IMG/VR virus record: IMGVR_UViG_3300030102_006178
Location: 1-64,000 of that record
Direction: 5' to 3' (one strand)
Length of the DNA stretch: 64,000 nt
Source of the DNA: a virus
Below the pieces are notes generated by a model. It made no database searches, was not told the origin of the DNA, and saw only the letters and a list, made by a program, of their open reading frames with translations. The position numbers and the translations under genes are program-made. This document shows, in pieces, positions 1,350 through 24,500 of this stretch. Within the stretch, counting starts at the first letter, position 1; each line of letters begins with the position of its first letter.

Positions 1350-2230
1350 CAAAGATTTCTGATATCAAGAGAACCATTGAGACTATGTTAAATGAACAAG
1401 ACAGTTCATTTAAGAAAAATCTAAATGAAGAAAAGAATCTATTTGCTTCATATATAAGACATTGTATATATGAAGCAAGACTCAAGAACCACAGTAATTT
1501 AGAAAAAGAGCAAATAATAAGATCTTATATAAAGTCCTTTCTTTTAGAATCTGAAGCTGTAGGCGGTTCTCCTGACGCCCCCTCAGAGATCACAGCAATA
1601 AACTTTTTGAAGAACCTTCTTAAGAGTATTATACCTACTACTGAAGAGGGATACAAGGAACTTACTTCTGCAAAGACACAAAGAATTTCTTTTAGAAGGC
1701 ACATACTTAACGCAACAGATAACTTGTTAAAAAATCTGGATGCCGACCCTGATGCTGTTGAGAGTGGGAATCAAGAGCTTGGTGAATTAAGTCTTTCTGT
1801 CAATCCATCAGAAAAGCCAGAGGGCTTTATAGACATATATGGAGACGACACAGCAGGCGATGAGCAAGAGCTAGATCCAGAGCAAGAGTTTGCAAGAGGC
1901 TTAGAAGATAAGAACCTCGATAATACTGGAAGAAATGCCGCATTTGAGGTATTTAAGAAGATCAAAAACCAAATTGAAAACGAATATTCAAAACTAGATC
2001 CTGATGCGGTTGTCGATGGCAGGGAGGAAACAGAAAGAGAAATATTTAAAGACTACCTGCTACTTAATTTAAAGCTTTACTTTGATAAGTTTGAAGAGGA
2101 ACTAGGGCCGGGACCAGCAGAGCCGTCTACTCCATCGGAAGACGAGTTTAGGAGAATGGACCAGGCAGACGCTGCGAGTCCAGAAGGCGCTGGGGACGAG
2201 CTAATCCCGCCAGAGCAAGCAGGGATGTGA
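1346..2230 (+). CDS. Acidic protein of unknown function
   Basis: A protein of 294 residues that I do not recognise. The N-terminal 75 residues are helical and include IIRSYIKSFLLE, which resembles short amphipathic helices in three other proteins of this window (48923, 50377, 55699). The remainder is strongly acidic and proline-rich towards the end (GPGPAEPSTPSEDE), typical of scaffold, core or disordered virion proteins. AAGGA at about 1332 precedes the ATG by 9 bases. The stop overlaps the start of the next gene. Confidence 0.7.
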   Translation: MTKISDIKRTIETMLNEQDSSFKKNLNEEKNLFASYIRHCIYEARLKNHSNLEKEQIIRSYIKSFLLESEAVGGSPDAPSEITAINFLKNLLKSIIPTTEEGYKELTSAKTQRISFRRHILNATDNLLKNLDADPDAVESGNQELGELSLSVNPSEKPEGFIDIYGDDTAGDEQELDPEQEFARGLEDKNLDNTGRNAAFEVFKKIKNQIENEYSKLDPDAVVDGREETEREIFKDYLLLNLKLYFDKFEEELGPGPAEPSTPSEDEFRRMDQADAASPEGAGDELIPPEQAGM

Positions 2231-2604
2231 TGGCTTGGAAAACAAAGAAAGAGTTTAATTCTAAGACAAAGTATTTTAGTTTAGCAAATAAGTTAAGGAA
2301 AGAAAAGAAAATAAATAGAGAGTTTGAATCTCAAATAAGTAATCTTACTTTAGAAGAGCTAATAGGTTTAAAACTTGAATTATCAACAAAAGCAGTAGAC
2401 AATAGATTATATAATTTGCCTATATGGCATAGCCTAGTTAACATAGTACAAGAAGCGGTTCTATCATATGCTTTCTCAGCTACAAGAACTAAAAGAGAAG
2501 CTATGAGATTTATAGGACTAAACGAAAGAATGATCTATAAACTAAAAGATAAGTATGATATAAACGCTATTTTGGAAGAAATTGAAAATGATGAGCAATT
2601 ATGA
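2230..2604 (+). CDS. Helix-turn-helix protein, unknown function
   Basis: A protein of 124 residues from the ATG at 2230. AGGG at 2221-2224 is better spaced for it than for the GTG at 2227. The N-terminus is very basic. Residues about 80-115 (ATRTKREAMRFIGLNERM) look like a Fis-type helix-turn-helix followed by a basic recognition helix. A DNA-binding role is reasonable, for example a transcriptional regulator or small terminase subunit, but nothing else supports either. The end overlaps the next gene by 17 bases. Confidence 0.65.
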   Translation: MAWKTKKEFNSKTKYFSLANKLRKEKKINREFESQISNLTLEELIGLKLELSTKAVDNRLYNLPIWHSLVNIVQEAVLSYAFSATRTKREAMRFIGLNERMIYKLKDKYDINAILEEIENDEQL

Positions 2605-2848
2605 GGTATTAGCAAAATCATTAATATGGAGATTCTGTGTCTCAATACCAGTGAGTTTGTTCATAACTTATCTCTTTTTAGGATCTCTCATGGGGTCTAT
2701 CGCACTAACAGCGACAGCAAACTTTGTAGGTACAGTTCTATATTATTTATTTGACATTTTTTGGTTTTCTTATTTAGGGGATGCCTTGGGTTTCGACAGG
2801 GTAGTTGAAGAGGATAGTGCAGGCAGTCGTGATGACTTAAAAAATTAA
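2588..2848 (+). CDS. DUF2061-like membrane protein overlapping the tmRNA
   Basis: An 86-residue protein from the ATG at 2588, with GGAAG about 10 bases upstream. Two membrane segments lie at about residues 12-32 and 36-60. The pattern SLIWRF...GSLMGSIALT...GTVLYYLFDIFW fits the DUF2061 family of small phage and bacterial membrane proteins (function unknown). The last 23 codons lie inside the tmRNA gene (2777-2848): residues after FSYL are encoded by the tmRNA 5' arm and its stop sits in the tmRNA. Cleavage of the tmRNA 5' end would leave this message without a stop codon. Confidence 0.7.
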   Translation: MMSNYEVLAKSLIWRFCVSIPVSLFITYLFLGSLMGSIALTATANFVGTVLYYLFDIFWFSYLGDALGFDRVVEEDSAGSRDDLKN

Positions 2849-3133
2849 AACAAACTAGTTGCCAACAACAACGCACACTTTGATTCCGTCCGCCTAGCGG
2901 CTTAATCAGGGAGGCTGACCAGGGCCTTCTATCCAATCTGGTCAACACAACAGACAAGTTGTAAAAATCAAAATGGTTACCCTACTTGTAGTAGGTGGAG
3001 CTTTTCGGTGATAAAAGCTGGTTGATGTGTTAACGCCTATACTTGCTTGTGAGTGAAAGCAACACAAGCCAAGCCTGTGGATGACTTGAATTGAATTTTA
3101 TTCTGGACGCGGGTTCGACTCCCGCCATCTCCA
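2777..3133 (+). ncRNA. ssrA: Transfer-messenger RNA (tmRNA), one-piece
   Basis: This is a complete tmRNA of about 357 bases; CCA is not encoded. The 5' end GGGGATG (2777-2783) pairs with CATCTCC (3126-3132) to give a 7-bp acceptor stem with the G3:U70 wobble that marks alanine charging. A3133 is the discriminator. The 5' arm has the conserved GGGTTTCGAC. The 3' end has GGACGCGGGTTCGACTCCC, with T stem GCGGG/CCCGC. The tag frame starts at 2861 after AACTAGTT. A helix TGACCAG/CTGGTCA (2916-2922/2938-2944) follows the tag. tmRNA with SmpB frees stalled ribosomes and tags the unfinished protein. No smpB gene is visible here, so host SmpB is presumably used. Confidence 0.95.
2861..2905 (+). other. 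tmRNA tag reading frame (ANNNAHFDSVRLAA)
   Basis: The frame runs from the GCC resume codon at 2861 to TAA at 2903-2905. It encodes ANNNAHFDSVRLAA, to which the charged alanine of tmRNA is added first. The context AACTAGTT-GCC-AAC parallels the E. coli ATAGTC-GCA-AAC. The end RLAA fits the -LAA degron recognised by ClpXP-type proteases. The encoded tag has 14 residues, against 10 in E. coli. Confidence 0.88.
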
Positions 3134-3150: not shown

Positions 3151-3447
3151 ATGGACAAAAGAAAAATCAGAAAAGAAAACATAAAAAGAAAGATGATGAA
3201 GTTTTACCAGGACAATCCATGTGTTGATTGTGGCGAGACAGACCCTCGTGTTCTAGACTTTGATCACATCAATAATAAAAAGTACAACGTCAGTACCCTT
3301 CTGAGAAAAGAATATTCTTGGGACTCGATATTGAAAGAGGCTTCAAAGTGTGAAGTTAGGTGCGCTAACTGTCACAGAAAGAAAACAGCAATAGAACAAG
3401 AACATTACACAAATCGCCTCCTAGGAGAATTCTTTGCCTATTTATAG
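3151..3447 (+). CDS. HNH endonuclease, small free-standing type
   Basis: A protein of 98 residues with AAAGGTG just before the ATG. Two Cys pairs (C24-x2-C27 and C71-x2-C74) form a zinc-binding frame around the nuclease site: DFDH at 36-39 supplies the first histidine, and RCANCHRKK at 70-78 supplies the N and second H. This is the compact HNH layout of many phage homing or nicking enzymes. It begins 17 bases after the tmRNA, so it may have arrived as a mobile gene beside a conserved RNA target. Its cleavage site cannot be read from sequence. Confidence 0.85.
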   Translation: MDKRKIRKENIKRKMMKFYQDNPCVDCGETDPRVLDFDHINNKKYNVSTLLRKEYSWDSILKEASKCEVRCANCHRKKTAIEQEHYTNRLLGEFFAYL

Positions 3448-6221: not shown

Positions 6222-7001
6222 TTGCCACACATATCATATTCTGAGCTTCGTAACTGGCAAGAATGCACCTGGAGGCATAAGCTTCTTTACATAGATAAGC
6301 TCAGTGTCCCGCAAGGCTCAGAGCACACTTGCTTTGGTACTGCTGTGCACGACACAGTTGAGCTTATGCTTCTAGGTAAGCTAGGCGATGAGCAGCTATA
6401 TCCAAACTTTCATAAAAAGTTTACAGAAGAACTCAAAGCTATAGGAATAGAAGAAGATACGCAGCTAGCAAAGGATATGAGACACCAAGTCAATGGCATT
6501 TTTGAGGCGATTAGGCCAGCAATCGCCTCATATTTTGAGGACAAAGGTGGCTGGAGTGTTGTAGCCGCAGAAGAATCTCTGATGGAGCCCATACAGGAAT
6601 CTAGAGTTAAGGACTATAACTTTAAAGGCTTTATAGATTTAATCCTTAAAGATGGAAATGGACATTTTCATGTTATAGATTGGAAAACTTGCTCATGGGG
6701 CTGGAATGCTAGAAAGAAGAGTGACATCCTCTATACAAGACAACTTGTTTTATACAAGCATTATTATGCAAAAAAGTACAATCTCAATCCAAGAGCAATA
6801 TCTGTTCATTTTGGGCTGATCAAGAGAACAGCTAAGAAAAATAGAATAGAATTGTTTAGAGTCACAAGTGGCGAAAGAAAAACGAAAAATTCACTTGACT
6901 TTATGGACAAAATGCTTTATAATGTTACGAACAAACGATTTATTAAAAATCGTCTATCTTGCAAGTGGTGCCCCTTTAGCGGCACTGAACATTGTTCATG
7001 A
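6222..7001 (+). CDS. PD-(D/E)XK (RecB/Cas4-like) nuclease
   Basis: A 259-residue protein using the TTG at 6222, chosen because GAGG at 6212-6215 is well placed and the upstream gene ends at 6220; a GTG at 6210 is the alternative. SYSELRNW near the N-terminus is typical of the family. The catalytic core is GFIDLI with D139 and VIDWKT with D153 and K155. C15 together with C247, C250 and C258 matches the four-cysteine iron-sulfur pattern of AddB/Cas4/Dna2-type nucleases. It is probably a DNA exonuclease acting in recombination or host DNA degradation. Confidence 0.85.
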   Translation: MPHISYSELRNWQECTWRHKLLYIDKLSVPQGSEHTCFGTAVHDTVELMLLGKLGDEQLYPNFHKKFTEELKAIGIEEDTQLAKDMRHQVNGIFEAIRPAIASYFEDKGGWSVVAAEESLMEPIQESRVKDYNFKGFIDLILKDGNGHFHVIDWKTCSWGWNARKKSDILYTRQLVLYKHYYAKKYNLNPRAISVHFGLIKRTAKKNRIELFRVTSGERKTKNSLDFMDKMLYNVTNKRFIKNRLSCKWCPFSGTEHCS

Positions 7002-7008
7002 GGATTTA

Positions 7009-8265
7009 ATGAAAAAGAAAATAAAGGTCTTGACATTGTCAGACCACCCCCTATCACCCTCAGGGGTTGGCACTCAGACCAAGTATTTTATTGAAGCTCT
7101 CCTTAGAACAGGAAAGTTTCAATTTATTTGTTTAGGGGGTGCAGTAAAGCACAAGAGCTATGAACCACAAAAGGTTTCTCCGTTTGAAGACGATTGGACA
7201 ATAATACCAATTGATGGATACGGAGATGCTCAAAAAATTAGATCGATCATCAGAAACGAAAAGCCAGATATCTTATGGTTTATGACAGATCCGCGCTTCT
7301 ACGAATGGCTATGGTTTATAGAAAACGAGATTAGACCTATTATGCCAATGGTATATTACCATGTCTGGGACAACCACCCTGCGCCTGTGTTTAACAGGCC
7401 ATTCTATCTATCAAACGACTTAATTGTCTCTATCTCCAAGGTTACACATGAAATTGTATCGGAAGCTGCTCCGGAAGTGGCGAACATTTACCACCCCCAT
7501 GCGGTTGATCCTGCTATATTTAGGCCAGTTTCTCAGGATGAGATAGACTCCATGAGAGAGAAGAACCTACAAGGGAATAAAGATAAGGTAGTGTTTTTCT
7601 GGAACAATAGGAACGCAAGAAGAAAGCAGAGTGGTTCCCTTGTTTTCTGGTTCAACGAGTGGGCAGATAAAGTTGGTAGAGACAAGGTTTGTCTCATCAT
7701 GCATACAGATCCGCATGATGTGCACGGGCAACCTCTAGAGCACTTAATTGAGCATGTTGGTAACGATGGTACTATCATGATATCTAACACTAAGGTGCCG
7801 CCCAACATACTTGCAAATATGTACAATATGTCCGATTGCACCATTAACATTTCTGATGCGGAGGGGTTTGGACTAGCAACACTTGAGTCTCTTTCCTGCG
7901 GAACTCCAATCCTTGTTAATATGACTGGTGGGCTGCAAGAACAGGTAACAGACGGAGAAGATTGGTTTGGTATAGGCATACAGCCTGCCTCTAAGGCAGT
8001 CATCGGCTCCCAGCAAGTTCCATACATCTATGAAGACAGGATTAGCAAGGAAGACTTCCATGCTGCTCTAGACCGTATCTACGAGATGTCAAGCTCTGAA
8101 AGAAAGCAGCTTGGGATCAAGGGAAGGGAACACGTAGAGAAAAACTACAGTTTTGAGAAGTATTGTCAGGGCTGGGTTGATATTATGCTAGAGGTATATG
8201 AGCAGCATGGCTCCTGGGAAGAGCGCGAAGGGTATAAATCTTGGGACTTTAAGGAGATAGTATGA
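7009..8265 (+). CDS. Glycosyltransferase, GT-B fold (GT4-like)
   Basis: A 418-residue protein from the ATG at 7009, with GAGG six bases upstream; the frame is open further upstream but overlaps the nuclease gene. The N-terminus KVLTLSDHPLSPSGVGTQTK is the acceptor-domain glycine loop of GT4 enzymes. The C-terminal half has SDAEGFGLATLESLSCGTP, the E-x7-E nucleotide-sugar motif. It would transfer a sugar from a nucleotide donor, in the cytoplasm. It is the first gene of the sugar cassette and overlaps the next by four bases. Confidence 0.88.
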   Translation: MKKKIKVLTLSDHPLSPSGVGTQTKYFIEALLRTGKFQFICLGGAVKHKSYEPQKVSPFEDDWTIIPIDGYGDAQKIRSIIRNEKPDILWFMTDPRFYEWLWFIENEIRPIMPMVYYHVWDNHPAPVFNRPFYLSNDLIVSISKVTHEIVSEAAPEVANIYHPHAVDPAIFRPVSQDEIDSMREKNLQGNKDKVVFFWNNRNARRKQSGSLVFWFNEWADKVGRDKVCLIMHTDPHDVHGQPLEHLIEHVGNDGTIMISNTKVPPNILANMYNMSDCTINISDAEGFGLATLESLSCGTPILVNMTGGLQEQVTDGEDWFGIGIQPASKAVIGSQQVPYIYEDRISKEDFHAALDRIYEMSSSERKQLGIKGREHVEKNYSFEKYCQGWVDIMLEVYEQHGSWEEREGYKSWDFKEIV

Positions 8266-9500
8266 TAAAGAAAGTTTTAGTTAGAGGGCCAGCACTAACC
8301 CAGTCAGGCTACGGCGAGCACACAAGGTTTTTACTTAGAGCCCTAAGGGGACAGCCAGAACAGTTTGACGTATATCTCATAGCTCTCAATTGGGGCCAAA
8401 CGGGATGGCTTTCAGAGAACACTGAGGAGCGTCGATGGATGGATTCTCTTGTCATGAAAACTCATCAGTACGTGCAATCCGGTGGTCAGTTTGACATGTC
8501 AATACAAGTCTCCATCCCTAATGAATGGGAGAGGCTAGCACCTTATAATGTTGGTGTAACTGCTGGTATTGAAACAACCAAGGTTGCTCCCATTTGGCTT
8601 GAGAAAGCAAATCAGATGGACAAGGTCATTACTATATCCGAGCACGCTAAGAGCGTCTTTGAAAATACGTCCTATCAGGGCATCAATAAAATGACTCAAC
8701 AGCCAATGACACTAAAGTGCGAAACTCCAATTGAGATTGTCCACTACCCTGTCAAGACTGTTGAGCATGAAGACCTAGGTATCGAGTTAGATTATGACTT
8801 CAACTATCTTCTTGTCTCCCAATGGGGCCCTAGAAAGAACATTGAGAACGCAATCAAGTGGTGGGTAGAGGAGAACTGGGATCAAGAAGTTGGGCTGATT
8901 ATAAAAACATCCCAAAAGAACAACTCTATTATGGATAGAGAACACGTTAGCAATAACCTGTCTAAGCTATTAAACGCATGCAGACCAGAAGGGGCAAAGT
9001 GTAAAGTTTACCTTATTCACGGAGACCTTTCCGAGGACCAGATGCAGTCTCTCTACGTCCATAAGCAAATCAAGGCTCTGATTAACCTTAGTCATGGTGA
9101 GGGCTTTGGCCTGCCTATGTTCGACGCAGCACGACACGGACTTCCCGTTATTGCCCCTTCTTGGTCTGGGCAGTGCGACTTCTTGTACATTACCTATCCC
9201 AATGGCAAGAGAAAGGCCATGTTTGCTGATGTAAACTACGACATAGCGCCTGTTCACGAGGCAGCTGTATGGGACGGGGTAGTCCAGAGAGACAGTATGT
9301 GGTGTTATCCTCATGAGGGACACTACAAGATGCGCTTACGACAGACTAGAAAGAGTTGGGCCAAGTGGAAGAAGAAAGCGAAGGAACTACAGAGGTGGAT
9401 CTTACAACAGTTTGATTCCGACAAGCAGCATAAGCTTTTTGCGGATGCAATCTGTTTTACTGAGTCTAGTTTTGAAGAAACATTAAGGATGTTTTCATGA
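8262..9500 (+). CDS. Glycosyltransferase, GT-B fold
   Basis: A protein of 412 residues. The N-terminus KVLVRGPALTQSGYGEHTR is the loop of GT4-type transferases, and NLSHGEGFGLPMFDAARHGLP (about 277-297) is the donor-binding segment. The layout parallels its upstream neighbour, suggesting successive transfer steps on one glycan. Four-base overlaps on both sides make translational coupling likely. Donor and acceptor cannot be inferred. Confidence 0.87.
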   Translation: MIKKVLVRGPALTQSGYGEHTRFLLRALRGQPEQFDVYLIALNWGQTGWLSENTEERRWMDSLVMKTHQYVQSGGQFDMSIQVSIPNEWERLAPYNVGVTAGIETTKVAPIWLEKANQMDKVITISEHAKSVFENTSYQGINKMTQQPMTLKCETPIEIVHYPVKTVEHEDLGIELDYDFNYLLVSQWGPRKNIENAIKWWVEENWDQEVGLIIKTSQKNNSIMDREHVSNNLSKLLNACRPEGAKCKVYLIHGDLSEDQMQSLYVHKQIKALINLSHGEGFGLPMFDAARHGLPVIAPSWSGQCDFLYITYPNGKRKAMFADVNYDIAPVHEAAVWDGVVQRDSMWCYPHEGHYKMRLRQTRKSWAKWKKKAKELQRWILQQFDSDKQHKLFADAICFTESSFEETLRMFS

Positions 9501-11089
9501 AAATACTCTTTATATCTGACTTTTTCTTATCAGATGGAGTTCTTGGTGGGGCAGAGCTTGTAAACGACTGCCTGGTTCATCACCTTCGTAGTAGAGGTTA
9601 CTCGGTTGAGGAAAAGCGCAGTTCTGATCCAATCAATTTTTCTTTGTATGATTTTTTTATTATATCAAATTTTGTTAACATGCCGGAACAAGTCAAGGAT
9701 TCTCTATACGATAAGCCTTACATTATCTATGAGCACGATCACAAATACTTGAAGAACAGGAACCCTTCAGTTTTTATAGATTTTAAGGCACCAAAAGAGA
9801 TGCTGGTTAACGAAAAGTTTTATCGTTCTGCAATATCTGTTTTTTGCCAATCAGTTTTGCATGAAGAAGTAATTAGAAAAAATCTATCATTAAGGAACAC
9901 TGTAAATACAGGATGTAGTCTCTGGTCTAAAGAGCATTTTGATATTTTAAGGAATAACCAAAATAGAGAAAAGAATGGTCTTTGCGCTGTCTTGCAGTCT
10001 TCTAACCCCATCAAGGGAACGAGAAGAGCAGAAAAATATTGTCTAGATAATGGTATTCAATACGAAACTGTGCCCTTTACAGACTTCAAAACATTCATTG
10101 ATAACATCTCAAAATATGAGAAGCTAATTTTTTTCCCAGAGACCCTAGAAACATTCTGTAGGGTTGTCGCAGAGGCCCGTATGGTGGGCTGTGGACTTAT
10201 TACCAATGATCTGAATGGCTGCACTCATGAAGAGTGGTTCTCTCGCTACAAGGGCCAAGAACTGCTTGATTTTATTGAGAACAAGCAAGAAGAGATTGTG
10301 AATAAGCTTGTTGATGTGATTAACGGAAAGAAGTTACAAGGAGAGCCAGAGGATATCACAGTTATCCTAAACTGCTATCGCAGACCTTACAACCTCAGGA
10401 TGCAAATCGATGCTATCAGATCGCAAACTCGTCCACCAAAAGAGATTTGGCTTTGGGTCAATAGGCACGAAGATAATGAAGATTTCTCTTTTGAAGCTTT
10501 AGGTCTAGATAAGGTTTTTCACAATGATTATAACTGGAAATTTTATGGGAGATTCGCAGGTGCGCTCTTGGCAGATACAGAATATGTCGCCATTTTTGAT
10601 GACGATACGATACCCGGCACAAAATGGTTTGATAATTGTTTAAATACAATGCTGGAAAGCGAGGGCATTTTGGGCTCTGCAGGCGTAATTTTGGACGATA
10701 AGTATTATATTCGCCACCAAAGGTGTGGCTGGCCAACACAAAATAAAGAAATAAAAGAGGTAGATCTTGTTGGGCATGCTTGGTTCTTCAAGCGGGATTG
10801 GTTGCAATACTTATGGAGAGAGAAGCCTCCCACATGGGACAATGGTGAAGATATACACTTCTCTTATGCTGCTCAAAGGTACGGCGGTGTAAAGACTTAT
10901 TGCCCTCCGCACCCATCTGATGATATTGAGCTACATGGGTCGATCATGGGCAATGAGCTTGGTGTTGATGATAAGGCCACATCAAATAACAATGAAACAT
11001 CACACCAACAGTTCTTTTCAGAAAGAGACTTTTGCGTCCAAGATTCTCTTCGCAAGGGTTGGAAAACAGTAAATGGTGTAAAGCTATGA
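9497..11089 (+). CDS. Bimodular glycosyltransferase (GT-B-like plus GT-A/GT2-like)
   Basis: A protein of 530 residues. Residues 1-280 resemble a GT-B transferase (ILFISDFFLSDGVLGGAELV, then PETLETFCRVVAEARMVGCG in the donor-lobe position). Residues about 287-530 look like a GT-A transferase: ITVILNCYRRP start, VAIFDDDTIPG with the DxD metal site near 369-371, and a later WDNGEDIHFS segment. Two transferase folds in one chain suggest two linkages made by one protein. It overlaps the 2-epimerase start by four bases. Confidence 0.8.
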   Translation: MKILFISDFFLSDGVLGGAELVNDCLVHHLRSRGYSVEEKRSSDPINFSLYDFFIISNFVNMPEQVKDSLYDKPYIIYEHDHKYLKNRNPSVFIDFKAPKEMLVNEKFYRSAISVFCQSVLHEEVIRKNLSLRNTVNTGCSLWSKEHFDILRNNQNREKNGLCAVLQSSNPIKGTRRAEKYCLDNGIQYETVPFTDFKTFIDNISKYEKLIFFPETLETFCRVVAEARMVGCGLITNDLNGCTHEEWFSRYKGQELLDFIENKQEEIVNKLVDVINGKKLQGEPEDITVILNCYRRPYNLRMQIDAIRSQTRPPKEIWLWVNRHEDNEDFSFEALGLDKVFHNDYNWKFYGRFAGALLADTEYVAIFDDDTIPGTKWFDNCLNTMLESEGILGSAGVILDDKYYIRHQRCGWPTQNKEIKEVDLVGHAWFFKRDWLQYLWREKPPTWDNGEDIHFSYAAQRYGGVKTYCPPHPSDDIELHGSIMGNELGVDDKATSNNNETSHQQFFSERDFCVQDSLRKGWKTVNGVKL

Positions 11090-12084
11090 TTCTCATGGCA
11101 TTTGGCACAAGACCAGAATATATTAAGATTAAACCTTTGATCAAAGAAATGGAAGGCAAAATTCCTTTCAAACTACTTTTCACTGGGCAGCATGTTGATC
11201 TCCTTTCGAACGTAAAAGATCAAGACGTAATCCAGCTACATATTAAAGATGGCCCTAACCGACTTGACTCTATTGTATCCTCGATTATGGGCCAGGACCA
11301 CATTTTTGAAGGCGTTGATGCTGTTTTGGTGCAGGGAGACACGACTTCTGTTTTTGCCATAGCTCTCGCAGCTTTTCACCGAAAGATAAAAGTGATTCAC
11401 CTTGAAGCCGGTCTTAGAACCTACGATAAGCAAAATCCATACCCAGAGGAGTTCAACAGGCAAGCTGTTTCTCGCATCGCTGATATTCATCTGTGTCCTA
11501 CCTCTACTGCGGCGCTTAATCTCTCTCAAGAGTCTGTAGGAGGTTCCGTGTACATTGTGGGAAATACAGTATTAGACAACCTGACGCATTTAACGCCGAC
11601 AAAGGATAATACAGTTGTCATTACGATGCACAGAAGAGAAAATCATAAAAAAATGGATCACTGGTTCAAGGCACTTGATCATGTAGCAAAAACCTTTTCA
11701 CATGAGTATCGGTTTATTTTACCTATTCATCCAAACCCAAACGTCCAGAAGCACCGTCACCTCCTAGAGCATGTTGAGGTAATTGATCCTGTTCCTTATG
11801 AGGAGTTTCTAGAGATGTTGGCATCCTGCTCTTATGTTATTACGGACAGTGGCGGCCTGCAAGAAGAGACATCTTTCTTGGGTAAGCACTCTATTGTTTG
11901 CAGAAAGACGACAGAGAGATCAGAAGGTCTTGGGAAGTTCTCAGCTCTGTGTCCACGTCCAGAATTGCTTTTTGAGATGTTTGGAAATATGATACGAACC
12001 CCAGATCCAATAGGGGAATGTCCATACGGTGATGGAAATTCTTCTAAGAAAATAGTTGACATATTATTAAAAAGCGTTATATAG
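11086..12084 (+). CDS. wecB: UDP-N-acetylglucosamine 2-epimerase, non-hydrolysing type
   Basis: A 332-residue protein from the ATG at 11086, overlapping the upstream gene by four bases. Family landmarks appear in order: FGTRPEYIK at the N-terminus, VQGDTTSV, HLEAGLRT, EEFNRQAVSRIAD, MHRREN and TDSGGLQEE, then ERSEGL. The enzyme interconverts UDP-GlcNAc and UDP-ManNAc. It is slightly short for the family (usually about 370). In the cassette it would supply a ManNAc-type donor to adjacent transferases. The gene symbol is by family resemblance only. Confidence 0.88.
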   Translation: MILMAFGTRPEYIKIKPLIKEMEGKIPFKLLFTGQHVDLLSNVKDQDVIQLHIKDGPNRLDSIVSSIMGQDHIFEGVDAVLVQGDTTSVFAIALAAFHRKIKVIHLEAGLRTYDKQNPYPEEFNRQAVSRIADIHLCPTSTAALNLSQESVGGSVYIVGNTVLDNLTHLTPTKDNTVVITMHRRENHKKMDHWFKALDHVAKTFSHEYRFILPIHPNPNVQKHRHLLEHVEVIDPVPYEEFLEMLASCSYVITDSGGLQEETSFLGKHSIVCRKTTERSEGLGKFSALCPRPELLFEMFGNMIRTPDPIGECPYGDGNSSKKIVDILLKSVI

Positions 12085-12101
12085 GCTAAAAGAGAGAAGC
12101 T

Positions 12102-13256
12102 TTGAAAATTAAATTTATAAACCATGCTTGTATTTCTATAGAAACAGAAGATACTATGATAATGTTTGACCCTTGGTTTAGCGGTAAAATATTTAATAAT
12201 TCTTGGGATCTCCTGCGAGAGACTAGATTAGACGACTTGGATATACGAAATCTTAAGTTCATTGCAATTACACATGAACACCCAGACCATCTAAACTGGG
12301 CTACGCTAAAGCAGCTTATAATCTCTAAACCAGAATTAAAAATTATTATTCCTAAAAGAAGGAATAGTAACGTTGCAATTGCTTTGCGAAAAATGGGATT
12401 TAAAGTCGCTGAGATCCCTCCAAACAGGGAACTTCAATTAGGCAATAAGTTAAGAATATGCAACTTCCCAAGTCAGAATGACTCTGCTTATGTTGTTGTT
12501 GCAGACGGGAAAGTGATTTTAAATCAAAATGATTGCTACCTGACAGACCAAGAGTGCAAAAGGATAAAAGTTAGATATCCAGATATAGATTACCATTTTG
12601 TGCAGTTTTCTTTGGCTGGTTATTACGGAAATAAAGCAGAAACGCAAAAGCTTATGCATGCGAAACAACACCACATTGACTTAGTTTCTAATTACAACTC
12701 TATCTTTAAGTCCAAAGTTCTTGTTCCATTTGCTAGTTTTATTTATTTTTGTAGGCCATACAACACTTTCCTTAATGATTGGGCTGTTACAATGGATGAT
12801 CTTGACAAAGAATATCAAATTGTTTTTTTTGGAGATGAAGTACTTACATCTAAAGAACATTTTAATCGTTCTGCTACCAATAGAGATAGGTGGAAAGAAG
12901 TGTTTGCTAGTAAGCGAGATTTGTTCGAGCCAGAAAGGGTGCCTAAGGATTTAATAAAACAAGCCGCACAAAGGTATTTGGACTCAATACCACCAGGGAT
13001 TCAGTGTCCACCTTCAACTTCTTTTTCATTTTTCGATGAAAAAGAAAATCTTTTTATAGATTTTAAAAATAAAAGAGCGGATTTCACTTCATCCAGCGTA
13101 AATTTAGCGGGAGTGCTTACGACTTATGATATGCTCTTATTTTTTAAAAATCCATGGGGTGCTGATACACTAAACATTACCTCCTGCTTTGAGGTGAGAG
13201 ATGAAAAACTATGGAAACAAAATTTAATATTTAAGGATACCCAATATGTTAGGTAA
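12102..13256 (+). CDS. Metallo-beta-lactamase-fold hydrolase (UlaG/CMAH-like)
   Basis: A 384-residue protein starting at TTG 12102, with AGAGAG upstream; the N-terminus KIKFINHACISIET is the usual first strand of the fold. THEHPDH (57-63) supplies the zinc ligands H58, H60, D62 and H63. MFDPWFSGK near residue 21 resembles CMP-Neu5Ac hydroxylase-like and UlaG-like members often found in polysaccharide clusters. No Rieske cluster is present. The substrate is unknown but is probably a sugar or sugar nucleotide. It overlaps the next gene by 11 bases. Confidence 0.75.
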   Translation: MKIKFINHACISIETEDTMIMFDPWFSGKIFNNSWDLLRETRLDDLDIRNLKFIAITHEHPDHLNWATLKQLIISKPELKIIIPKRRNSNVAIALRKMGFKVAEIPPNRELQLGNKLRICNFPSQNDSAYVVVADGKVILNQNDCYLTDQECKRIKVRYPDIDYHFVQFSLAGYYGNKAETQKLMHAKQHHIDLVSNYNSIFKSKVLVPFASFIYFCRPYNTFLNDWAVTMDDLDKEYQIVFFGDEVLTSKEHFNRSATNRDRWKEVFASKRDLFEPERVPKDLIKQAAQRYLDSIPPGIQCPPSTSFSFFDEKENLFIDFKNKRADFTSSSVNLAGVLTTYDMLLFFKNPWGADTLNITSCFEVRDEKLWKQNLIFKDTQYVR

Positions 13257-13842
13257 CGTAGAGGTTTTAGAATTTAGATTTCTAGATGTAAAAGATGAAG
13301 CTGATATAAATACATATTCTGACGAATATGCTTGGTCTAGACCATACGAGTATAATCTCGCTTCTAAGTTTTTGGATAACCAATTAAAAGTAGGAAGTTC
13401 GATTCACAATAGTGCTTGGGGGTTTGAGGGAGTTCATATAGATTTTAGGAACACCCTAGACAAAAAATATAGATGCACTCACTCAGATATTGTAAAAAAT
13501 AAATATAATTTAGAGACTTACTATTATAACCTTTTCAATAGAGATCCTAAATTAATTGAAAATTTTGATTGCGTATTAAACATTTCTGTGTTAGAACATT
13601 TACCCGGAGGGTTTAATAGCACAGAAATGGTTTTGGAAAATCTTTTAGAACAGGCTAAAGTAGGTGGATTATTGCTTTGCACCTTCGATTACCCAATAGT
13701 AAACCTAAAAAAATTAGAAAGCCTTTTAGGGTGTAAGTGTATCGACGCCGAGAACAGGCTTAGTGGGGCAAACTCAGTGGTGAAGAACAATACTTATGAA
13801 AACCTAAACATAGTGTTTTTAGCTCTTAGGAGGCTATCTTGA
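13246..13842 (+). CDS. Class I SAM-dependent methyltransferase-like protein
   Basis: A protein of 198 residues. The order of elements matches a small Rossmann methyltransferase: VHIDFRN as an acidic strand, then FDCVLNISVLEHLPGG as motif IV with the family's EH, then GGLLLCTFDYP. The usual glycine-rich motif I is poorly matched (SIHNSAWGFEG), so cofactor binding is not certain. It is probably a sugar or lipid methylase in the cassette. Confidence 0.65.
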   Translation: MLGNVEVLEFRFLDVKDEADINTYSDEYAWSRPYEYNLASKFLDNQLKVGSSIHNSAWGFEGVHIDFRNTLDKKYRCTHSDIVKNKYNLETYYYNLFNRDPKLIENFDCVLNISVLEHLPGGFNSTEMVLENLLEQAKVGGLLLCTFDYPIVNLKKLESLLGCKCIDAENRLSGANSVVKNNTYENLNIVFLALRRLS

Positions 13843-14570
13843 TACTAAAAACTGAAGATTTTAGAGAAGATTTAGATCTCTTAATTAATAATATTGGAAA
13901 AAATAATTTTGCTTTTACTAGATTTGGTGATGGTGAAATGATGATTATCAATAATCAATTTATTGACCTTCTCGACAAAAATACTGGAGAATTTAAGTAT
14001 GACCCGAGCGATGCTTCCTATCAGCTAAGCCAGTCTTTGTTGTCAAAATCCTTTTCTTTTGAAAAAGAAAATTATTTTGTTGGTTTGCCTTGCCCTTGTT
14101 GTGTTGGATGGCCTAAACATTTATTTATGATTAAAGCTTGTGGTCTCCCCAAGAGAAGCATTACCTGGGCAAATCTGTTTGTTAATTCAAACTATAGATA
14201 CTTTATAGAAAAACTGCCAGAAGTTTTTAAAGACAAAAAAGTGCATTTAATTTCCAATGAGAACTCTACTGTATCAGAAATGCCTTTTCAAATATATAGA
14301 CATTATAAGGTTGGTAGAGATGCTTGGAAAAATGATTTACAAATTATTGAATACATAAAGCAAGAAATAACAATCAATAATTACGAAAATCATATTTTTT
14401 TATTTTGCGCTGGACCTTTAAGTAACATTGCATGTTGCGAGCTATTTGACTTTAATGAAAAAAATACCTTTATAGACTGTGGATCGATATTCGATCCGTA
14501 TTTAGGACTGGGTCAAACAAGAGATTATCTAAAAGGAGGATTTGATGCAAGAAAGAAATGCTTATGGTAA
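13839..14570 (+). CDS. GT-D fold glycosyltransferase (DUF1792-like)
   Basis: A 243-residue protein starting at TTG 13839, with AGGAGG at 13828-13833. FTRFGDGEM (26-34) is the hallmark of the GT-D fold, with D31-G32-E33 binding metal and nucleotide sugar. A C-terminal HIFLFCAGPLSNIACCELF segment matches the family's second nucleotide-binding element. It would transfer a hexose onto a glycan made by the neighbouring enzymes. Low GC and many AT-rich codons set this stretch (about 12100-15120) apart from the neighbouring transferases and suggest separate acquisition. Confidence 0.75.
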   Translation: MILKTEDFREDLDLLINNIGKNNFAFTRFGDGEMMIINNQFIDLLDKNTGEFKYDPSDASYQLSQSLLSKSFSFEKENYFVGLPCPCCVGWPKHLFMIKACGLPKRSITWANLFVNSNYRYFIEKLPEVFKDKKVHLISNENSTVSEMPFQIYRHYKVGRDAWKNDLQIIEYIKQEITINNYENHIFLFCAGPLSNIACCELFDFNEKNTFIDCGSIFDPYLGLGQTRDYLKGGFDARKKCLW

Positions 14571-15120
14571 TATAGTTATTCCACCATTTAATTATACCAC
14601 GGCTGAAGACACAGCTTGTGAATTTTTGAAAGGTGTCAAAATTAAAAATTTTATTAATGTTGGGTTTCATGGATGGTCGGATATAAGAAAACATTGGTGG
14701 ATCAACATATGTAATTTTAATGGGATTGAGTGGAAGATAGTAGAAGTATATAAGCCAAATGTTGACAATGCGATATCTGAAGGATGCCCACAGTCTAATA
14801 TCATTAATTTAAATATTAAACATGTTAGCGACCTGCCAGATGCAGACTGTCTCATGTTCTGGCACGGTCCAGAACATATGGAAAAAGATGAATTTTTACA
14901 GATATTGCCTCTGTTAGAAGATAAGTACCGCATGTTGTTATTTGGCATGCCTCTTGGACCAGAGCCTCAGGGGGAAGCATACGGAAACCCATTTGAGAAA
15001 CACGTATCCTCTTGGCAAGAATACGAATGGAGAGAGTTAGGTTATGAAGTGAGAGTGGTCTATAAAAATAGATCGTGGCCACATATAACAGCATGGAAAA
15101 TTAATGAAGGAGAAGAATAA
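14545..15120 (+). CDS. Methyltransferase-like protein of the sugar cassette
   Basis: A 191-residue protein from the ATG at 14545, five bases after AGGAGG. It overlaps the GT-D gene by 26 bases. FINVGFHGWSD is in the place of a cofactor-binding loop, WKIVEVYKPNV gives the acidic residue after strand 2, and CLMFWHGPEHMEKDE resembles a motif IV with EH. I infer a class I methyltransferase fold, but the match is weak and a non-catalytic relative is possible. Confidence 0.55.
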   Translation: MQERNAYGNIVIPPFNYTTAEDTACEFLKGVKIKNFINVGFHGWSDIRKHWWINICNFNGIEWKIVEVYKPNVDNAISEGCPQSNIINLNIKHVSDLPDADCLMFWHGPEHMEKDEFLQILPLLEDKYRMLLFGMPLGPEPQGEAYGNPFEKHVSSWQEYEWRELGYEVRVVYKNRSWPHITAWKINEGEE

Positions 15121-18559: not shown

Positions 18560-21500
18560 ATGTCGATATATGATGATTTAGAAAATTCAGTACTAGAAGT
18601 GGTTAGGCTTATTGAAGAAGAATCTAACATTTCAGGCATGTTTTTGGGAACTCCAGTTGGGTTTGAGTTGCCTAGTGGTCTTTTTTTAGACGATGGAATA
18701 TCGTTCTCTGTTTATTATGATGATGGAACTTATTACGGACCAGACACCTTCTTGTCGGGAGAAGGGTATCCGATAGAGCCGCCAGTTATTGGCTGCACAG
18801 ACAAAAGTGCCATAAACTATGACCCTTCTGCTACACATGATTGTTCTGGTGTTGCCACCACTTTATCTTATAAAAGTTTTATCCTGTTGTTGGAGTGGGC
18901 CACAATACTAAATAATAATATAAGCAATGAAGCAACATTTCTAGAAAGCTTGGCTGCTAGCGGACTTGCCTACGAAGATTTAATTTTTGATAGTTTAGGC
19001 GATAAACTTATGTTTGCAGGACAAACTGCGAACATAATAAACATTATTAAAGACAACGACCTAAACATCCCGCCAGAGGAGGGAGATCCAGATTTATCCT
19101 GCTGTGTATATGACCAAGGTACAATACCCCAGGATGACGACCCCGGTCCTAGCGACGGAGGGGACCCTACTCCTCCAAGAGGCGTAAGTTCCGCCAAGTG
19201 TGAAGATGAAGTTGTCGAAGATATAGTAGTAGAGACTTACCAGACGTGTTTCCCGAATCCAAATGCCATAGTTCCTGTCTGGTACGACCAGCCAGAAGGC
19301 CAGGCCTTTTTGAACGAAAAGACTTGCGAATATTCAATAGTAGTCTATGCAGACCCACCGGATTGTAGCGAAGAGTACATTAATTCATTCATTAATCCAG
19401 CAGTCCAACAGATGTTAGATTTCTATAATAAAGAATCTTCTGTAACCTTTACCAACCCAGCTAACGATAGAGAGCTAGAGTCAACTTCACTAAGGTCGTT
19501 AACAGAAGGCGTTAACAGTCAGTTTTACCTAGAGGGGCTACAATTTGCTGGAACAGCTAGAGTAAAGGACTTCTATATACCACCCAGGCCTCTTGCAAAA
19601 ACAAGAATATTAGTAACGGTATCAGCGGAAGAATTTAACAGAATCCCCGAGAAAGATCCACTTCTAGTAGAGTTTACAGATATTTCAAAAAATGAACTTG
19701 GAGAAGGCCCATCGTTTGTTATGCTCTCAACCAAAGATATGGTTAGAGTTTTTGACATAGTTGCAAGAAGTTTCCGTTATTTTGAGCTACCATATGTTGA
19801 GTGGGGAGTCGCAAACGGGAAAACAATAAAGGGCCTTAACTTCGTAAAGGACGCAGACAGAATTGAGAAGTTCTATGGAGACTTAAAGGGATTAGTGGAG
19901 GAAAGCTACGACTCCATATTTGAGTTGTCTTTCGTAAGGATAGATTTTGACGATTCCTACAAGATAACATCAGTCCAGGCAATTGATAGACTTGGAGCTT
20001 CCGAGTCTTTGCAGAAATCCTTCTCCACCTTTTTGGAAAAGCCAATACCAAGTAATCCAACAATAATGGCCTACGTATCAAGGCTTCCCGACATCAGAGA
20101 CGACTTAATTTCAAGAACACCTCTTGACTGGTATGAGATACTAGAAAAGTATAGGGTGCCAACCATAGAAGAAGTTTATGCAAGTGACCTATCTTCTCCA
20201 ATTGGAGAGGAGTTTAGCGGGCTAAAGGTTTTATCAGATGCTGCGTGCGCGGAAGGCTCAGATAGTTTTGAGCCAAAGAAGAATGCTGGGGAGTGGCTAG
20301 GCGCAGAGGCCAAGTCCTTAGCGCAAGCTTTGTACAACAAGTTGTCTCAAAATCCCTGTGCGATTATCGACTCTAGAATTTTAGAATCGCAAACAAGAGT
20401 CGATACTGTGATGGAAGTTGTTGACATGTCACTGAAGGAATACCTTGCAAGCGACCGCATTATCAACGACTTGCCCGTCATGCTTGCAAATGCTGCGTTT
20501 AAAGAATCTAGTTTTAATGATATAACTAACTTATATCAATCAATGCTTGACAACCTCGGCTACTGCGGGTGGTTGGATCTGATCAAAGCAGTTCTAGATT
20601 GTGTCCTTAACGCACTTGGCTATGAAGATTCTATTGGAATTATTGTCGGCGCAGCTGTAAGAGGCATGAGCAAAGAAGAATTTGCTAAGTTTTTAGCAAA
20701 CCTGCCTCCTGAGTTGATCGAGATTATAAGAGCCGCAGTTTCAGAATCCGCTCCACAGCTACTACCATTTTTAAGTGGGTTTGTCCAGGTAGAAATAGTT
20801 GACGGAGAAGGGATTGTTGTTGACCCAGTATATGACAGGGATTTAGCCTACAGTTATTCTAGTGAAGGGACATATGTTGGCACAACAAGAGCTTTAGGGG
20901 AAAAAGGTCCGTGGTTCGAGGCTCCAAGCGGTCAGCCATCCCCGTCCGCTCAAGACTATGCAACTTTGCAGAATGTAGTTTATGATTTAATTGTCGATGA
21001 TTTGTTGAATATTGATATTCTTCTAGAAAAACTAGAGGCGCTGCCAGGAGCGGCAATTGCTATATCGGTTATCAACAAGGTAGACAAATTCTGTATTGCG
21101 ACTCCAAAATTCTATCCACCACTAAGGGACTTTATAAGATTACCTGGGATTAGTGTGGACTTGTGCGCTATCGGAGAAGGGTCGGTTGTGAGAGTTTTCC
21201 CAGGATCAGTAGAGGTTCCTAAACTAACCTTGCCTGGTATCGGCCAAACTCTCTTGCGCTCCCTTTCAAAACTGGCCTTACAAATACTAAAACTAGCCTT
21301 AATACTTGTTTTAAGAAGATTGTTAGAAATAATATTTGAGGAAGCTTGTAAAAACAGGACGCCAGGAGATCCGCTCGGTCTTAGAGAAGCCTTGAGAAGT
21401 AGGTGTGGAAACGAGATATCAGATGATGATATTAACAGAGCAGCAGCAGACATACTAAACTCTAACATAGGTTGCGTTGAAGATCCAGCTGCACTGGGCA

Positions 21501-24500
21501 GGTTTGTCGACAATGTGTCTTCTGTAATTACGGAGTGTGAATTTGTTGACTTAGTAAACGGCGTAGCAAGTCAGAATGTTTATGATTTAATTATACAAAT
21601 AATGAAGGTTGACCCCATCACCCTGCCATTGGTTGAGTGCATAGGAGACCAGGAATCTTTGACCTCGTTCTTCAAGTCTATAGGGGCGCTGGTAGATATA
21701 GAATCCCTTTGTATTGTAAACCCACAAGATCTGCCATTCGGACAATCTGTGTGCGAAGACTTGACACTTCTAGACCTGTTTAGAGATACGAGAGCACAGG
21801 CCCTTAGAGATAAGGGAGTTGATGAGGAGTGCATCAACGATCAATTGTGTAGACTAAGGGATCGTACTCTTAATGACTTAGAAGAGCTAATGGATCTGCT
21901 CCATGGTGGCATTGATAATATTCTACCTGACCTGATCAAAGATCCTGACTCTGGTAAGGAAGGTCTCTTGCCTCCGCTTCCACCAGCGACAGAAGAGTTT
22001 GCTAACTCAATGTTTAACTCGCTCATGGATGGTGTGGAAGCACAGTTTGCCGAAGATATAATTGGTAGAAGAGGCTTTATCAATATGTGCCTAGCAGATT
22101 CTAGAGGAAGAGGGTACATTCAGCATCTCAACTTCCAAAAGATGTTTGGTCCAAAAACATTTAACATATATGGCTCAAGGGGAACGCGAACTTATCCCCC
22201 TAGAGATGAGTGGGGGCCGGGAGCCGAAAAAAGTAGTCTTGAAGACCACAACAGCTGGGTGACTGGTCCAATAAAATACACTGAGGACGCTTCAAAATTT
22301 ATATGGCTGCCTTATTTGTTTAACCCTCTAAGCTCAAACGGCGAACAACTTGATGAAGAAAACGACGAAGGATCTGACGTTAATAATGAAGGCACATGGA
22401 AGGGCAGGCCCCCAGCCATAGGAGGTCTACCCGACAAGGTGTCTGGGTATCTCCAAGAAGACCTAGAATCATACGGTGTTATATTTAGCGAGCTTGGAAG
22501 CTATATCTTTGAAAAGCAGTGGACAGATTACAACACGGAAGATAGAGATGATTTACAGTTTATATTTAAGTATGATTATAGAAGCCAAATTCCTTTGGGC
22601 AGAACGCCATACGACTATAGCGGATACAGAGTTTCCGTAGAGCTTCTGTTAGACAAGAAAGATGGAGACAAGAAGATAGTATATGTGGCAGATGATCCCA
22701 TATTACCCGAAGTTTCCGATTACATCCAGTTTAATTTGCATAGAAATAACTCCGATGAGCCTCCTAACCATTGGGCTCGGTTTATGTATAGTAAGATAGA
22801 GAGAGTGCTAGACCCAGATGACGGACGGCATATCCTAACTTCTAGAGACACTTTTGAAAATACATTTAAGTCTGTGTTTAGAGCGAACATCTTTAGAAAC
22901 GCTAGTGAAGGGTTTGTCAACATGATAGCCAAGGATATATCAAAAAACACAATTTTTGATTATGGTTATAACAGAGAGTCAGTCCCAGAAGTGGTCTTCT
23001 TCCACTTAGAAGAAGGAGGCGAGTACGAAGGGGACTTAGCAGGAGCTTTGGCAAGGTACGGAGGCTCAGAAGGTAATCCTCCATTCTATATTAAGGAGCC
23101 ACCCTCCACCGGATTCCTAAAGGTGTCCAAGGCTATATTGCCTGAAATCAAGTTATGTGATGAAGACAATCCTTTGGATAGAGTAACTTTCCCGAACTAC
23201 AAAGATTTGACTGACTTGAGTAGCCAGATTATCTCCAAAGTAAAGGACGATAGAAGGCTTCTGGCTTGCAACGGCAACATACTAAAAGTCATAGAGCCTC
23301 CATTTGACAGAGCACTGCCAGCAGCCACTAAGGCACTTAATGAATCCATAATTTTTGCAACGATTAGGACCTACATAGTGGAGTTCATGTTAAAGTCTCT
23401 GCCTGTTTTTACTTTCATGAAGCCTAGGTATCCAGACAACTATACAAACCTAATAACAGAATATATTGTACAAGACATGGAACTCGGACTACAAAACACA
23501 GGAAGAGGATTTAGGTTTGTTAGAAACTGGCAAGAATATTACTGGCTCTTCTTGGAGCAAGTAGTGCAGTCATATAGCACCAAGCTAAAGAAGGGCATCA
23601 TAGACAGAAACACTGCTCCGCAGTCAGAGCTAGATGCCTTAGCATCTATTAAAGCAACTGTAGAAAGAAACTGGTCTTACAAGAGAAACGCGACAGATCC
23701 AAAGAAGTCAAGACAAGACAAAAAGGAAGCTTGGGAGAAGGTGTTCCTTATCGACTCTGTTGTGTCAGACGCCAAGGTAATACTACGAAGGTATGTTGGG
23801 GAAGAGTTCAATAGGATGATACCAATCTTAGAAGAAACCTTGCCTAAACTAGCGGCCACAGTTCATGATGTGAATAAGCCAGGGTTATACCCGATAGATA
23901 ACAAGGACGATTTAATTCTGCTGTCTGAACCCAGGCCAAAGCCATATTCAACTCTCCCAGGTGTTTATGAAGTTCCATACGTTGCAGGTGCTGTCAATAG
24001 GGAAGAGGCAGGGCCAGTTGACGTTCCGCCAATCTCCTTTATTGGCGCGGTGGGAACTCATCCACTAGATTTGCTAAGTGGCATTCCTTTTGCAGATAGA
24101 AACTGGCCTTTTGTCTTAGAAAGATATATTAAGGTAAACAACATAGGCCCCTCTAGTCACGGTCTTGGTACAATAATAAATATTTATGATTGGGAGGAGT
24201 ATGTAGCCAGGACTGGCATATCAGAAATACCGCCAGACGGTAGCTGGGAGTTTGGTATGAGACTTTCTTTTGTGCCGTCAGGAGGAGACGTTTTTGACAC
24301 CAAGATGAGATCCGAAGAATTTTCTACTGTTGAGGATATGAGTGATTATATTATTCCTGGCGTTGACTTCTCCGAAAAGGCTTACACAGAGACTTATAAG
24401 TATCTAATACCCATGGTTGGCGTTGAGGTTCCTATCATACCTGATGCTCCGGGGCAACTATACACAGCAGGTCTTTACAGTGACTATGTTCAGCCTTTAC

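What the first reader, a model, noticed from the sequence alone, without database searches (positions are those of the whole stretch)
2777..3133. Phage-encoded tmRNA with full alanine identity and tag frame
A complete one-piece tmRNA sits inside a phage gene run. It shows a 7-bp acceptor stem with G3:U70, T arm, conserved 5' GGGTTTCGAC and a clear tag frame. Phage tmRNAs are known but uncommon. It suggests the phage supplies its own trans-translation, perhaps with a different tag from the host.
Basis: partly seen in the sequence, partly recalled or inferred. Interest (0 to 1): 0.75.

Follow-up and report, generated by a model that had tools for sequence, protein, structure and literature searches.

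The report
Phage tmRNA overlapped by upstream gene
This uncultured phage carries a complete gene for tmRNA, the RNA that frees stalled ribosomes, and in its lineage the gene just upstream often ends inside that RNA, so making the RNA should cut the stop codon off the neighbour's message; the RNA is a known kind, the overlap looks new and can be tested at the bench.

Summary
The tmRNA is real. ARAGORN and Rfam agree on window 2777-3133(+) (103 bits, gathering 47). It has a fully paired 7-bp acceptor stem with G3:U70, a T arm, a small PK1 and tag ANNNAHFDSVRLAA. Relatives keep all seven acceptor pairs through compensatory changes and keep tags through synonymous ones. The contig is a T4-like phage fragment without SmpB, so the RNA must work through host proteins. 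Phage tmRNAs are a known kind; this is another member.

Among phoH-linked relatives, conserved CDSs run into the tmRNA in 13/22 cases, against 2/49 for tRNAs. Elsewhere in the lineage an orphan 68-aa protein ('A1', dN/dS about 0.04) directly precedes a tmRNA in 60/66 cases, its stop inside the tmRNA in 48. RNase P maturation would turn these messages into nonstop mRNAs, trans-translation substrates, as in E. coli arfA control. Overlap and linkage are shown; cleavage, tagging and regulation are inferred. Neutral genome compaction remains a serious rival. The host, and so any tag difference from the host, is unresolved.

The parts
2777..3133 (+). one-piece tmRNA (ssrA) gene through the discriminator base A; CCA not encoded
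   Evidence: ARAGORN; Rfam RF00023 103 bits, E 3.9e-39
2777..2783 (+). 5' strand of the acceptor stem, GGGGATG; its first base is the predicted RNase P cleavage site
   Evidence: 7/7 pairs with 3126-3132; covaries in relatives
3126..3132 (+). 3' strand of the acceptor stem, CATCTCC, with U70 of G3:U70
2825..2847 (+). PK1: AGUC/GACU (2825-2828, 2834-2837) and UGAU/AUUA (2830-2833, 2844-2847)
   Evidence: script, p about 0.03 against shuffles; L005, L007, L014 and L073 have the same layout
2861..2905 (+). tag reading frame ANNNAHFDSVRLAA with stop TAA
   Evidence: ARAGORN; synonymous variation of tags in relatives
3109..3125 (+). T arm
   Evidence: Rfam alignment
2588..2848 (+). DUF2061 membrane-protein CDS whose frame has no stop before 2777 and ends 72 nt inside the tmRNA
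   Evidence: PF09834 25.6 bits, cut-off 23.1; relative in L073 with the same in-frame junction; dN/dS 0.22
2227..2604 (+). A2-family CDS (125 aa, weak HTH similarity), the gene that directly abuts or enters the tmRNA in several relatives
3151..3447 (+). HNH endonuclease CDS just downstream of the tmRNA; neighbour, not shown to be part of the system
   Evidence: phrog_2255 E 1.8e-22; conserved in relatives at differing distance

Best explanation
2777-3133 encodes a functional one-piece tmRNA of a T4-like phage. It is probably cut from a longer transcript that also carries the small genes at 2227-2848, matured 5' by host RNase P and 3' by host CCA addition, charged with alanine by host AlaRS, and used with host SmpB, EF-Tu and ribosomes to add A-ANNNAHFDSVRLAA to proteins on stalled ribosomes during infection. 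Because the DUF2061 frame (2588-2848) has no stop before 2777, each RNase P cut should leave its message as a nonstop mRNA ending after a complete codon (TTA, Leu63), itself a trans-translation substrate. Shown: RNA anatomy, its conservation, the overlap and its recurrence. Inferred: co-transcription, processing, charging, tagging and any benefit to the phage.
For: tmRNA call and covariance-model match. All seven acceptor pairs and G3:U70 kept in all related phage tmRNAs tabulated while pairs 4-7 vary by compensatory changes. Tags vary synonymously (ANDNVEFDYALAA is written 9 ways; 66 of 68 distinct tags end in AA). tmRNA kept upstream of phoH in many relatives with differing upstream genes. 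No SmpB in 26 phage records, while the same search finds it in 10 bacterial controls. The upstream CDSs are real genes. CDS runs into the RNA in 13/22 tmRNAs against 2/49 tRNAs among phoH-fetched loci. No + strand promoter-like match between 2467 and 2777, and matches overall are at chance level, which fits co-transcription. RNase P processing, AlaRS recognition of G3:U70 and use of SmpB and EF-Tu are established for tmRNA (PMC3985003).
Against: Sequence only: no expression or processing data. The promoter scan covers only sigma-70-like sites; a phage-type promoter just before the tmRNA would remove the coupling. The host is unknown, so fit to host SmpB is untested. The record is a fragment whose missing part could hold smpB. 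PK1 is small.
Confidence: 0.8

Rival explanations
1. Selected feedback circuit. The overlap is kept because tmRNA maturation removes the stop codon of the upstream gene, so its product is tagged and destroyed while trans-translation is active and accumulates only when tmRNA is short, overloaded or unprocessed, as with E. coli ArfA. In the A1-bearing relatives the protein would be a partner or backup of the tmRNA.
For: 48 of 60 A1 genes directly before a tmRNA end inside it, at several different distances (8, 13, 27, 40, 41, 49 nt); the state changes at least 6-7 times on the A1 tree yet 'inside' prevails. All other A1 carriers but one, a 54-kb fragment, have a tmRNA elsewhere in the record. 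Three further upstream families also enter the tmRNA. arfA precedent: RNase III cleavage and SsrA tagging (PMC3985003, PMC3989581).
Against: No function known for A1 or DUF2061; no fold match to a rescue factor. The upstream genes are unrelated, which suggests a property of the site rather than one circuit. 12 of 60 A1 genes do have a stop before the tmRNA. Ribosomes close behind the polymerase could finish before the tmRNA folds.
Confidence: 0.3
2. Neutral compaction. T4-like phages pack genes tightly; the tmRNA 5' sequence happens to give an open frame or a ready-made TGA (GGGGRTGA), so losing the upstream stop codon costs nothing. The overlap has no function, though processing still yields some nonstop message.
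For: Stop positions cluster around the tmRNA 5' end on both sides (0 to 10 nt before, 1 to 13 nt inside). tRNAs in the same phages also show some short overlaps (13 of 130, mostly about 10 nt). Tail lengths differ between the window and L073.
Against: tmRNAs are entered far more often than tRNAs (13/22 against 2/49; not corrected for relatedness). In A1 the state 'inside' prevails although stops before the tmRNA have arisen repeatedly.
Confidence: 0.5
3. Interference. The phage tmRNA mainly titrates host SmpB or replaces the host tag with one that is degraded differently, changing host quality control rather than helping rescue.
For: No phage SmpB; a TLD-only RNA of mycobacteriophage DS6A has been suggested to act in this way (PMC4131195). 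The tag differs from flavobacterial tags.
Against: The whole tag frame, its AA end and PK1 are kept, which a bare SmpB sponge would not need.
Confidence: 0.12
4. Relic. A host ssrA copy caught by imprecise excision or used as an attachment site, without function.
For: ssrA is a common integration site, and several temperate phages match only the 3' end of the gene.
Against: Full length, all acceptor pairs kept by covariation, tags kept by synonymous change, same position upstream of phoH in many relatives; lytic T4-like context.
Confidence: 0.02

Closest known systems
Phage-encoded one-piece tmRNAs (mycobacteriophages Bxz1 and Wildcat, Bacillus phage G; list in PMC4131195)
   Same: complete ssrA in a phage genome, tRNA-like domain plus tag frame; the phage G tmRNA was checked here (tag AKLNITNNELQVA, 67.6 bits)
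   Different: other lineage and tag; the phage G tmRNA lies in a tRNA cluster and no listed same-strand ORF of 40 aa or more runs into its 5' end
Two-piece tmRNA of methylophage Melnitz and pelagiphages (PMC9004378)
   Same: tmRNA carried by a T4-like marine phage, expected to use host SmpB
   Different: Melnitz's is permuted and two-piece with a glutamine riboswitch; here it is one-piece and no riboswitch reaches the Rfam threshold
E. coli arfA nonstop regulation (PMC3985003, PMC3989581)
   Same: an endonuclease that removes the stop codon would make the upstream message a trans-translation substrate
   Different: here the cutter would be RNase P maturing the tmRNA itself; tagging is not shown; the upstream product is a DUF2061 protein, not a known rescue factor
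Flavobacteriales cellular tmRNA
   Same: one-piece tmRNA; the nearest cultured phage by terminase infects Flavobacterium
   Different: cellular RNAs are about 400 nt with tags such as GENNYALAA; the phage RNA is 357 nt with ANNNAHFDSVRLAA

Membership tests
tmRNA (Rfam RF00023) | covariance-model match over the gathering score | tested here: met
   103 bits against 47, full length
tmRNA (Rfam RF00023) | seven-pair acceptor stem with G3:U70 for alanylation | tested here: met
   7/7 pairs, G3:U70; invariant with compensatory changes at pairs 4-7 in relatives
tmRNA (Rfam RF00023) | internal tag frame with stop, hydrophobic end | tested here: met
   ANNNAHFDSVRLAA-stop; synonymous variation of tags
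tmRNA (Rfam RF00023) | PK1 upstream of the tag | tested here: met
   4+4 bp, p about 0.03, same layout in close relatives
tmRNA (Rfam RF00023) | charged with alanine, binds SmpB, tags stalled chains | not testable with these tools
   needs biochemistry
Phage-encoded tmRNA | gene lies in a phage genome, not in adjoining host DNA | tested here: met
   T4-like genes around it, same position in related phage contigs
Two-piece (permuted) tmRNA | circularly permuted gene | tested here: not met
   ARAGORN reports a standard, unpermuted tmRNA
ArfA-like nonstop-controlled gene | stop codon lies beyond an endonuclease processing site | tested here: met
   DUF2061 stop at 2846-2848, 72 nt past the predicted RNase P site; the cut itself is predicted, not observed
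ArfA-like nonstop-controlled gene | product tagged by tmRNA and rising when tmRNA is absent | not testable with these tools
   no expression data
ArfA-like nonstop-controlled gene | product is a ribosome rescue factor | tested here: inconclusive
   DUF2061 is a predicted membrane protein family; A1 of relatives has no significant family or PDB fold match

The most novel reading that the evidence does not exclude
In this uncultured T4-like lineage the tmRNA and the gene before it form one regulatory unit: RNase P release of the tmRNA makes the upstream message nonstop, so the tmRNA tags and removes its own neighbour's product. In many relatives that neighbour is a dedicated, apparently undescribed 68-residue tmRNA-linked protein (A1) that could be a partner, modulator or backup of trans-translation during infection.
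Probability: 0.3. Interest if true: 0.8.

Novelty: new variant of a known kind. Interest (0 to 1): 0.55.

Why it matters
Phage tmRNAs have been listed for years without a demonstrated role. A recurrent overlap with the upstream gene and a tmRNA-linked protein family give a concrete, testable handle: if real, RNase P processing would couple production of a ribosome-rescue RNA to silencing of its neighbour. It would add a route to programmed nonstop mRNAs besides the RNase III case of arfA, and give a candidate phage protein acting with tmRNA. If neutral, it still shows that phage coding sequences end inside tmRNA genes more often than inside tRNA genes.

Tried and rejected
Attachment-site relic: rejected, the RNA is full length and covarying. 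SmpB in the phage: none in 26 records. Homing endonuclease mobilising the tmRNA: the HNH gene is conserved in relatives at varying distance from the tmRNA, and L012 has it with no tmRNA found in the record (G005), so no specific link. Host by tag: the one genome scan found a single Flavobacteriales MAG contig with tag ANNNYHFESVRLAA that may be mis-binned phage DNA; Flavobacteriales genomes were searched and the loci read have other tags; host left open. T4-late-type TATAAAT before the tmRNA: 5 of 136, not general. Early tRNA controls with unvalidated ORFs gave a blurred contrast and were replaced by homology-validated ones. The pooled test is biased because A1 and A2 loci were fetched after the overlap was seen; the phoH-fetched subset is the one to quote. 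A DUF2061 search of viral contigs found no relatives; those used came from loci already held. A1 structure: confident model but no significant PDB match; one close viral-library match, A0A516MBE9, unnamed; weak similarity to YeeU-type proteins (E about 0.5-1) not relied on. A1 and A2 have no match among 50,697 phage records. Two mycobacteriophage accessions tried were not held. Paper searches for an RNase P counterpart of the arfA case found none.

Full report
Observation. ARAGORN finds one RNA gene in the window, a tmRNA at 2777-3133(+), tag ANNNAHFDSVRLAA. Rfam's tmRNA model matches it end to end with 103 bits (gathering 47, E 3.9e-39). The sequence shows acceptor strands GGGGATG (2777-2783) and CATCTCC (3126-3132) with all seven pairs formed and G3:U70, discriminator A at 3133 followed by TTT rather than CCA, GGGTTTCGAC from 2788, T arm 3109-3125 and tag frame 2861-2905. 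A small PK1 (AGUC/GACU and UGAU/AUUA) scores better than shuffles at p about 0.03, and L005, L007, L014 and L073 carry the same layout with UGAU/AUCA.

Where it is. The window belongs to an 80,227-base linear IMG/VR virus record. T4-type terminase, PhoH and HNH genes mark a T4-like phage. The closest cultured terminase is 50% identical (Flavobacterium phage immuto), and immuto has no tmRNA. The first 25 kb match no phage record in 'near' mode.

Relatives. Loci fetched with PhoH carry tmRNAs upstream of phoH with many tags. In all related phage tmRNAs tabulated the acceptor stem is 7/7 paired and G3:U70 is invariant while pairs 4-7 change together (GGGGATG/CATCTCC, GGGGGTG/CACCTCC, GGGGACG/CGTCTCC, GGGAGCG/CGCTTCC, GGGCCGC/GCGGTCC). 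Among 136 distinct tmRNAs, 68 distinct tags were read; 59 begin AN and 66 end in AA; identical peptides are written with different codons (ANDNVEFDYALAA nine ways). Both the tRNA-like part and the tag are therefore under selection. The nearest tmRNA, in L014, is 94% identical.

Dependence on host. SmpB (PF01668) is absent from this and 25 related records, though the same search finds it in 10 bacterial controls. With no CCA encoded either, the phage RNA must rely on host SmpB, AlaRS, EF-Tu, RNase P and the CCA enzyme (roles as reviewed in PMC3985003, CCA addition from general knowledge). Records may be fragments.

The overlap. The gene directly upstream (2588-2848) is a DUF2061 membrane protein (25.6 bits, cut-off 23.1; its relative in L073 scores 31.5). 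Its domain ends before 2777, but its frame has no stop until 2846-2848, inside the tmRNA. L073 has the same in-frame junction with a stop at +36, so this is not a sequencing slip, and the differing tails suggest that the extension itself does not matter. Window against L073 dN/dS is 0.22 over the part before the tmRNA. Among loci fetched with PhoH, hence not chosen for overlap, homology-validated upstream CDSs run into the tmRNA in 13 of 22 cases and into tRNAs in 2 of 49 (Fisher p 6.6e-7, not corrected for relatedness). At least four upstream families are involved: DUF2061, A2 (possible HTH; 6 of 44 inside), A1, and the family in L085 and L088 (by 1 nt).

A1. A 68-69 residue family was found by profile in 66 distinct genes. 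60 are followed directly by a tmRNA, and in 48 of these the stop codon lies inside it, most often because the tmRNA's own GGGGRTGA supplies TGA at nt 6-8. Where that TGA has been lost, frames run to 27, 40, 41 or 49 nt. Of the other six, L327 has the tmRNA about 244 nt downstream, L013, L252, L297 and L301 have one elsewhere in the record, and only L328, in a 54-kb fragment, has none found. Median dN/dS is 0.044. The inside/before state changes at least 6-7 times on the A1 tree (few columns, many weak forks). There is no convincing Pfam or PHROG family, no PDB match by sequence or fold and no match in 50,697 phage records; one unnamed viral-library structure is 63% identical. The predicted fold is beta-beta-alpha-beta-beta-beta, pLDDT 90. 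This window's record has no A1.

Mechanism. tmRNA 5' ends are made by RNase P (PMC3985003). If the upstream gene and the tmRNA share a transcript, each cut leaves the upstream message without a stop, in this window after a complete codon. E. coli arfA is controlled in a like manner through RNase III: nonstop message, SsrA tagging, protein made only when trans-translation fails (PMC3985003, PMC3989581). I found no paper on an RNase P counterpart. Co-transcription is plausible: no + strand promoter-like match lies between 2467 and 2777 and matches overall are at chance; T4-late-type sites precede few tmRNAs (5 of 136). None of this is shown experimentally. Neutral compaction explains much of the distance distribution and is the main rival for why the overlap exists.

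Verdict. The tmRNA is a new member of a known kind (phage tmRNAs: 402 of 18,146 genomes, PMC9004378; earlier list in PMC4131195). The recurrent CDS-into-tmRNA overlap and the tmRNA-linked A1 family make the locus a new variant worth testing.

Noticed in passing
L064:1802-2032 and about 65 other loci (alignment A3): Orphan 68-aa 'A1' protein family with a basic C-terminus, almost always directly before a tmRNA in T4-like phage contigs; no convincing Pfam or PHROG family and no isolate-phage match.
   Followed up: yes
window 6868-15120: Run of sugar-related genes: two phage-type glycosyltransferases, a frame resembling UDP-GlcNAc 2-epimerase (by eye), a beta-lactamase-fold hydrolase.
   Followed up: no
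L093:2630-2972(-): A contig of a Flavobacteriales MAG carries a phage-type tmRNA (ANNNYHFESVRLAA) and a tRNA-Thr; it may be phage DNA binned with the bacterium.
   Followed up: partly
L007, L009 and L013, directly upstream of the tmRNA: Short pilin-like proteins (ATxIEYG motif) end 4-8 nt before the tmRNA: yet another unrelated gene packed against it.
   Followed up: no
L019, L026, L034, L046, L049 and others: A second tag class, ANDNVE(F/V)DYALAA, in the same phoH-linked position, suggesting tmRNA exchange between phage lineages or differing hosts.
   Followed up: partly
window 18560-24934 and 28710-37085: Very large ORFs of 2124 and 2791 aa in the structural region, not annotated here.
   Followed up: no
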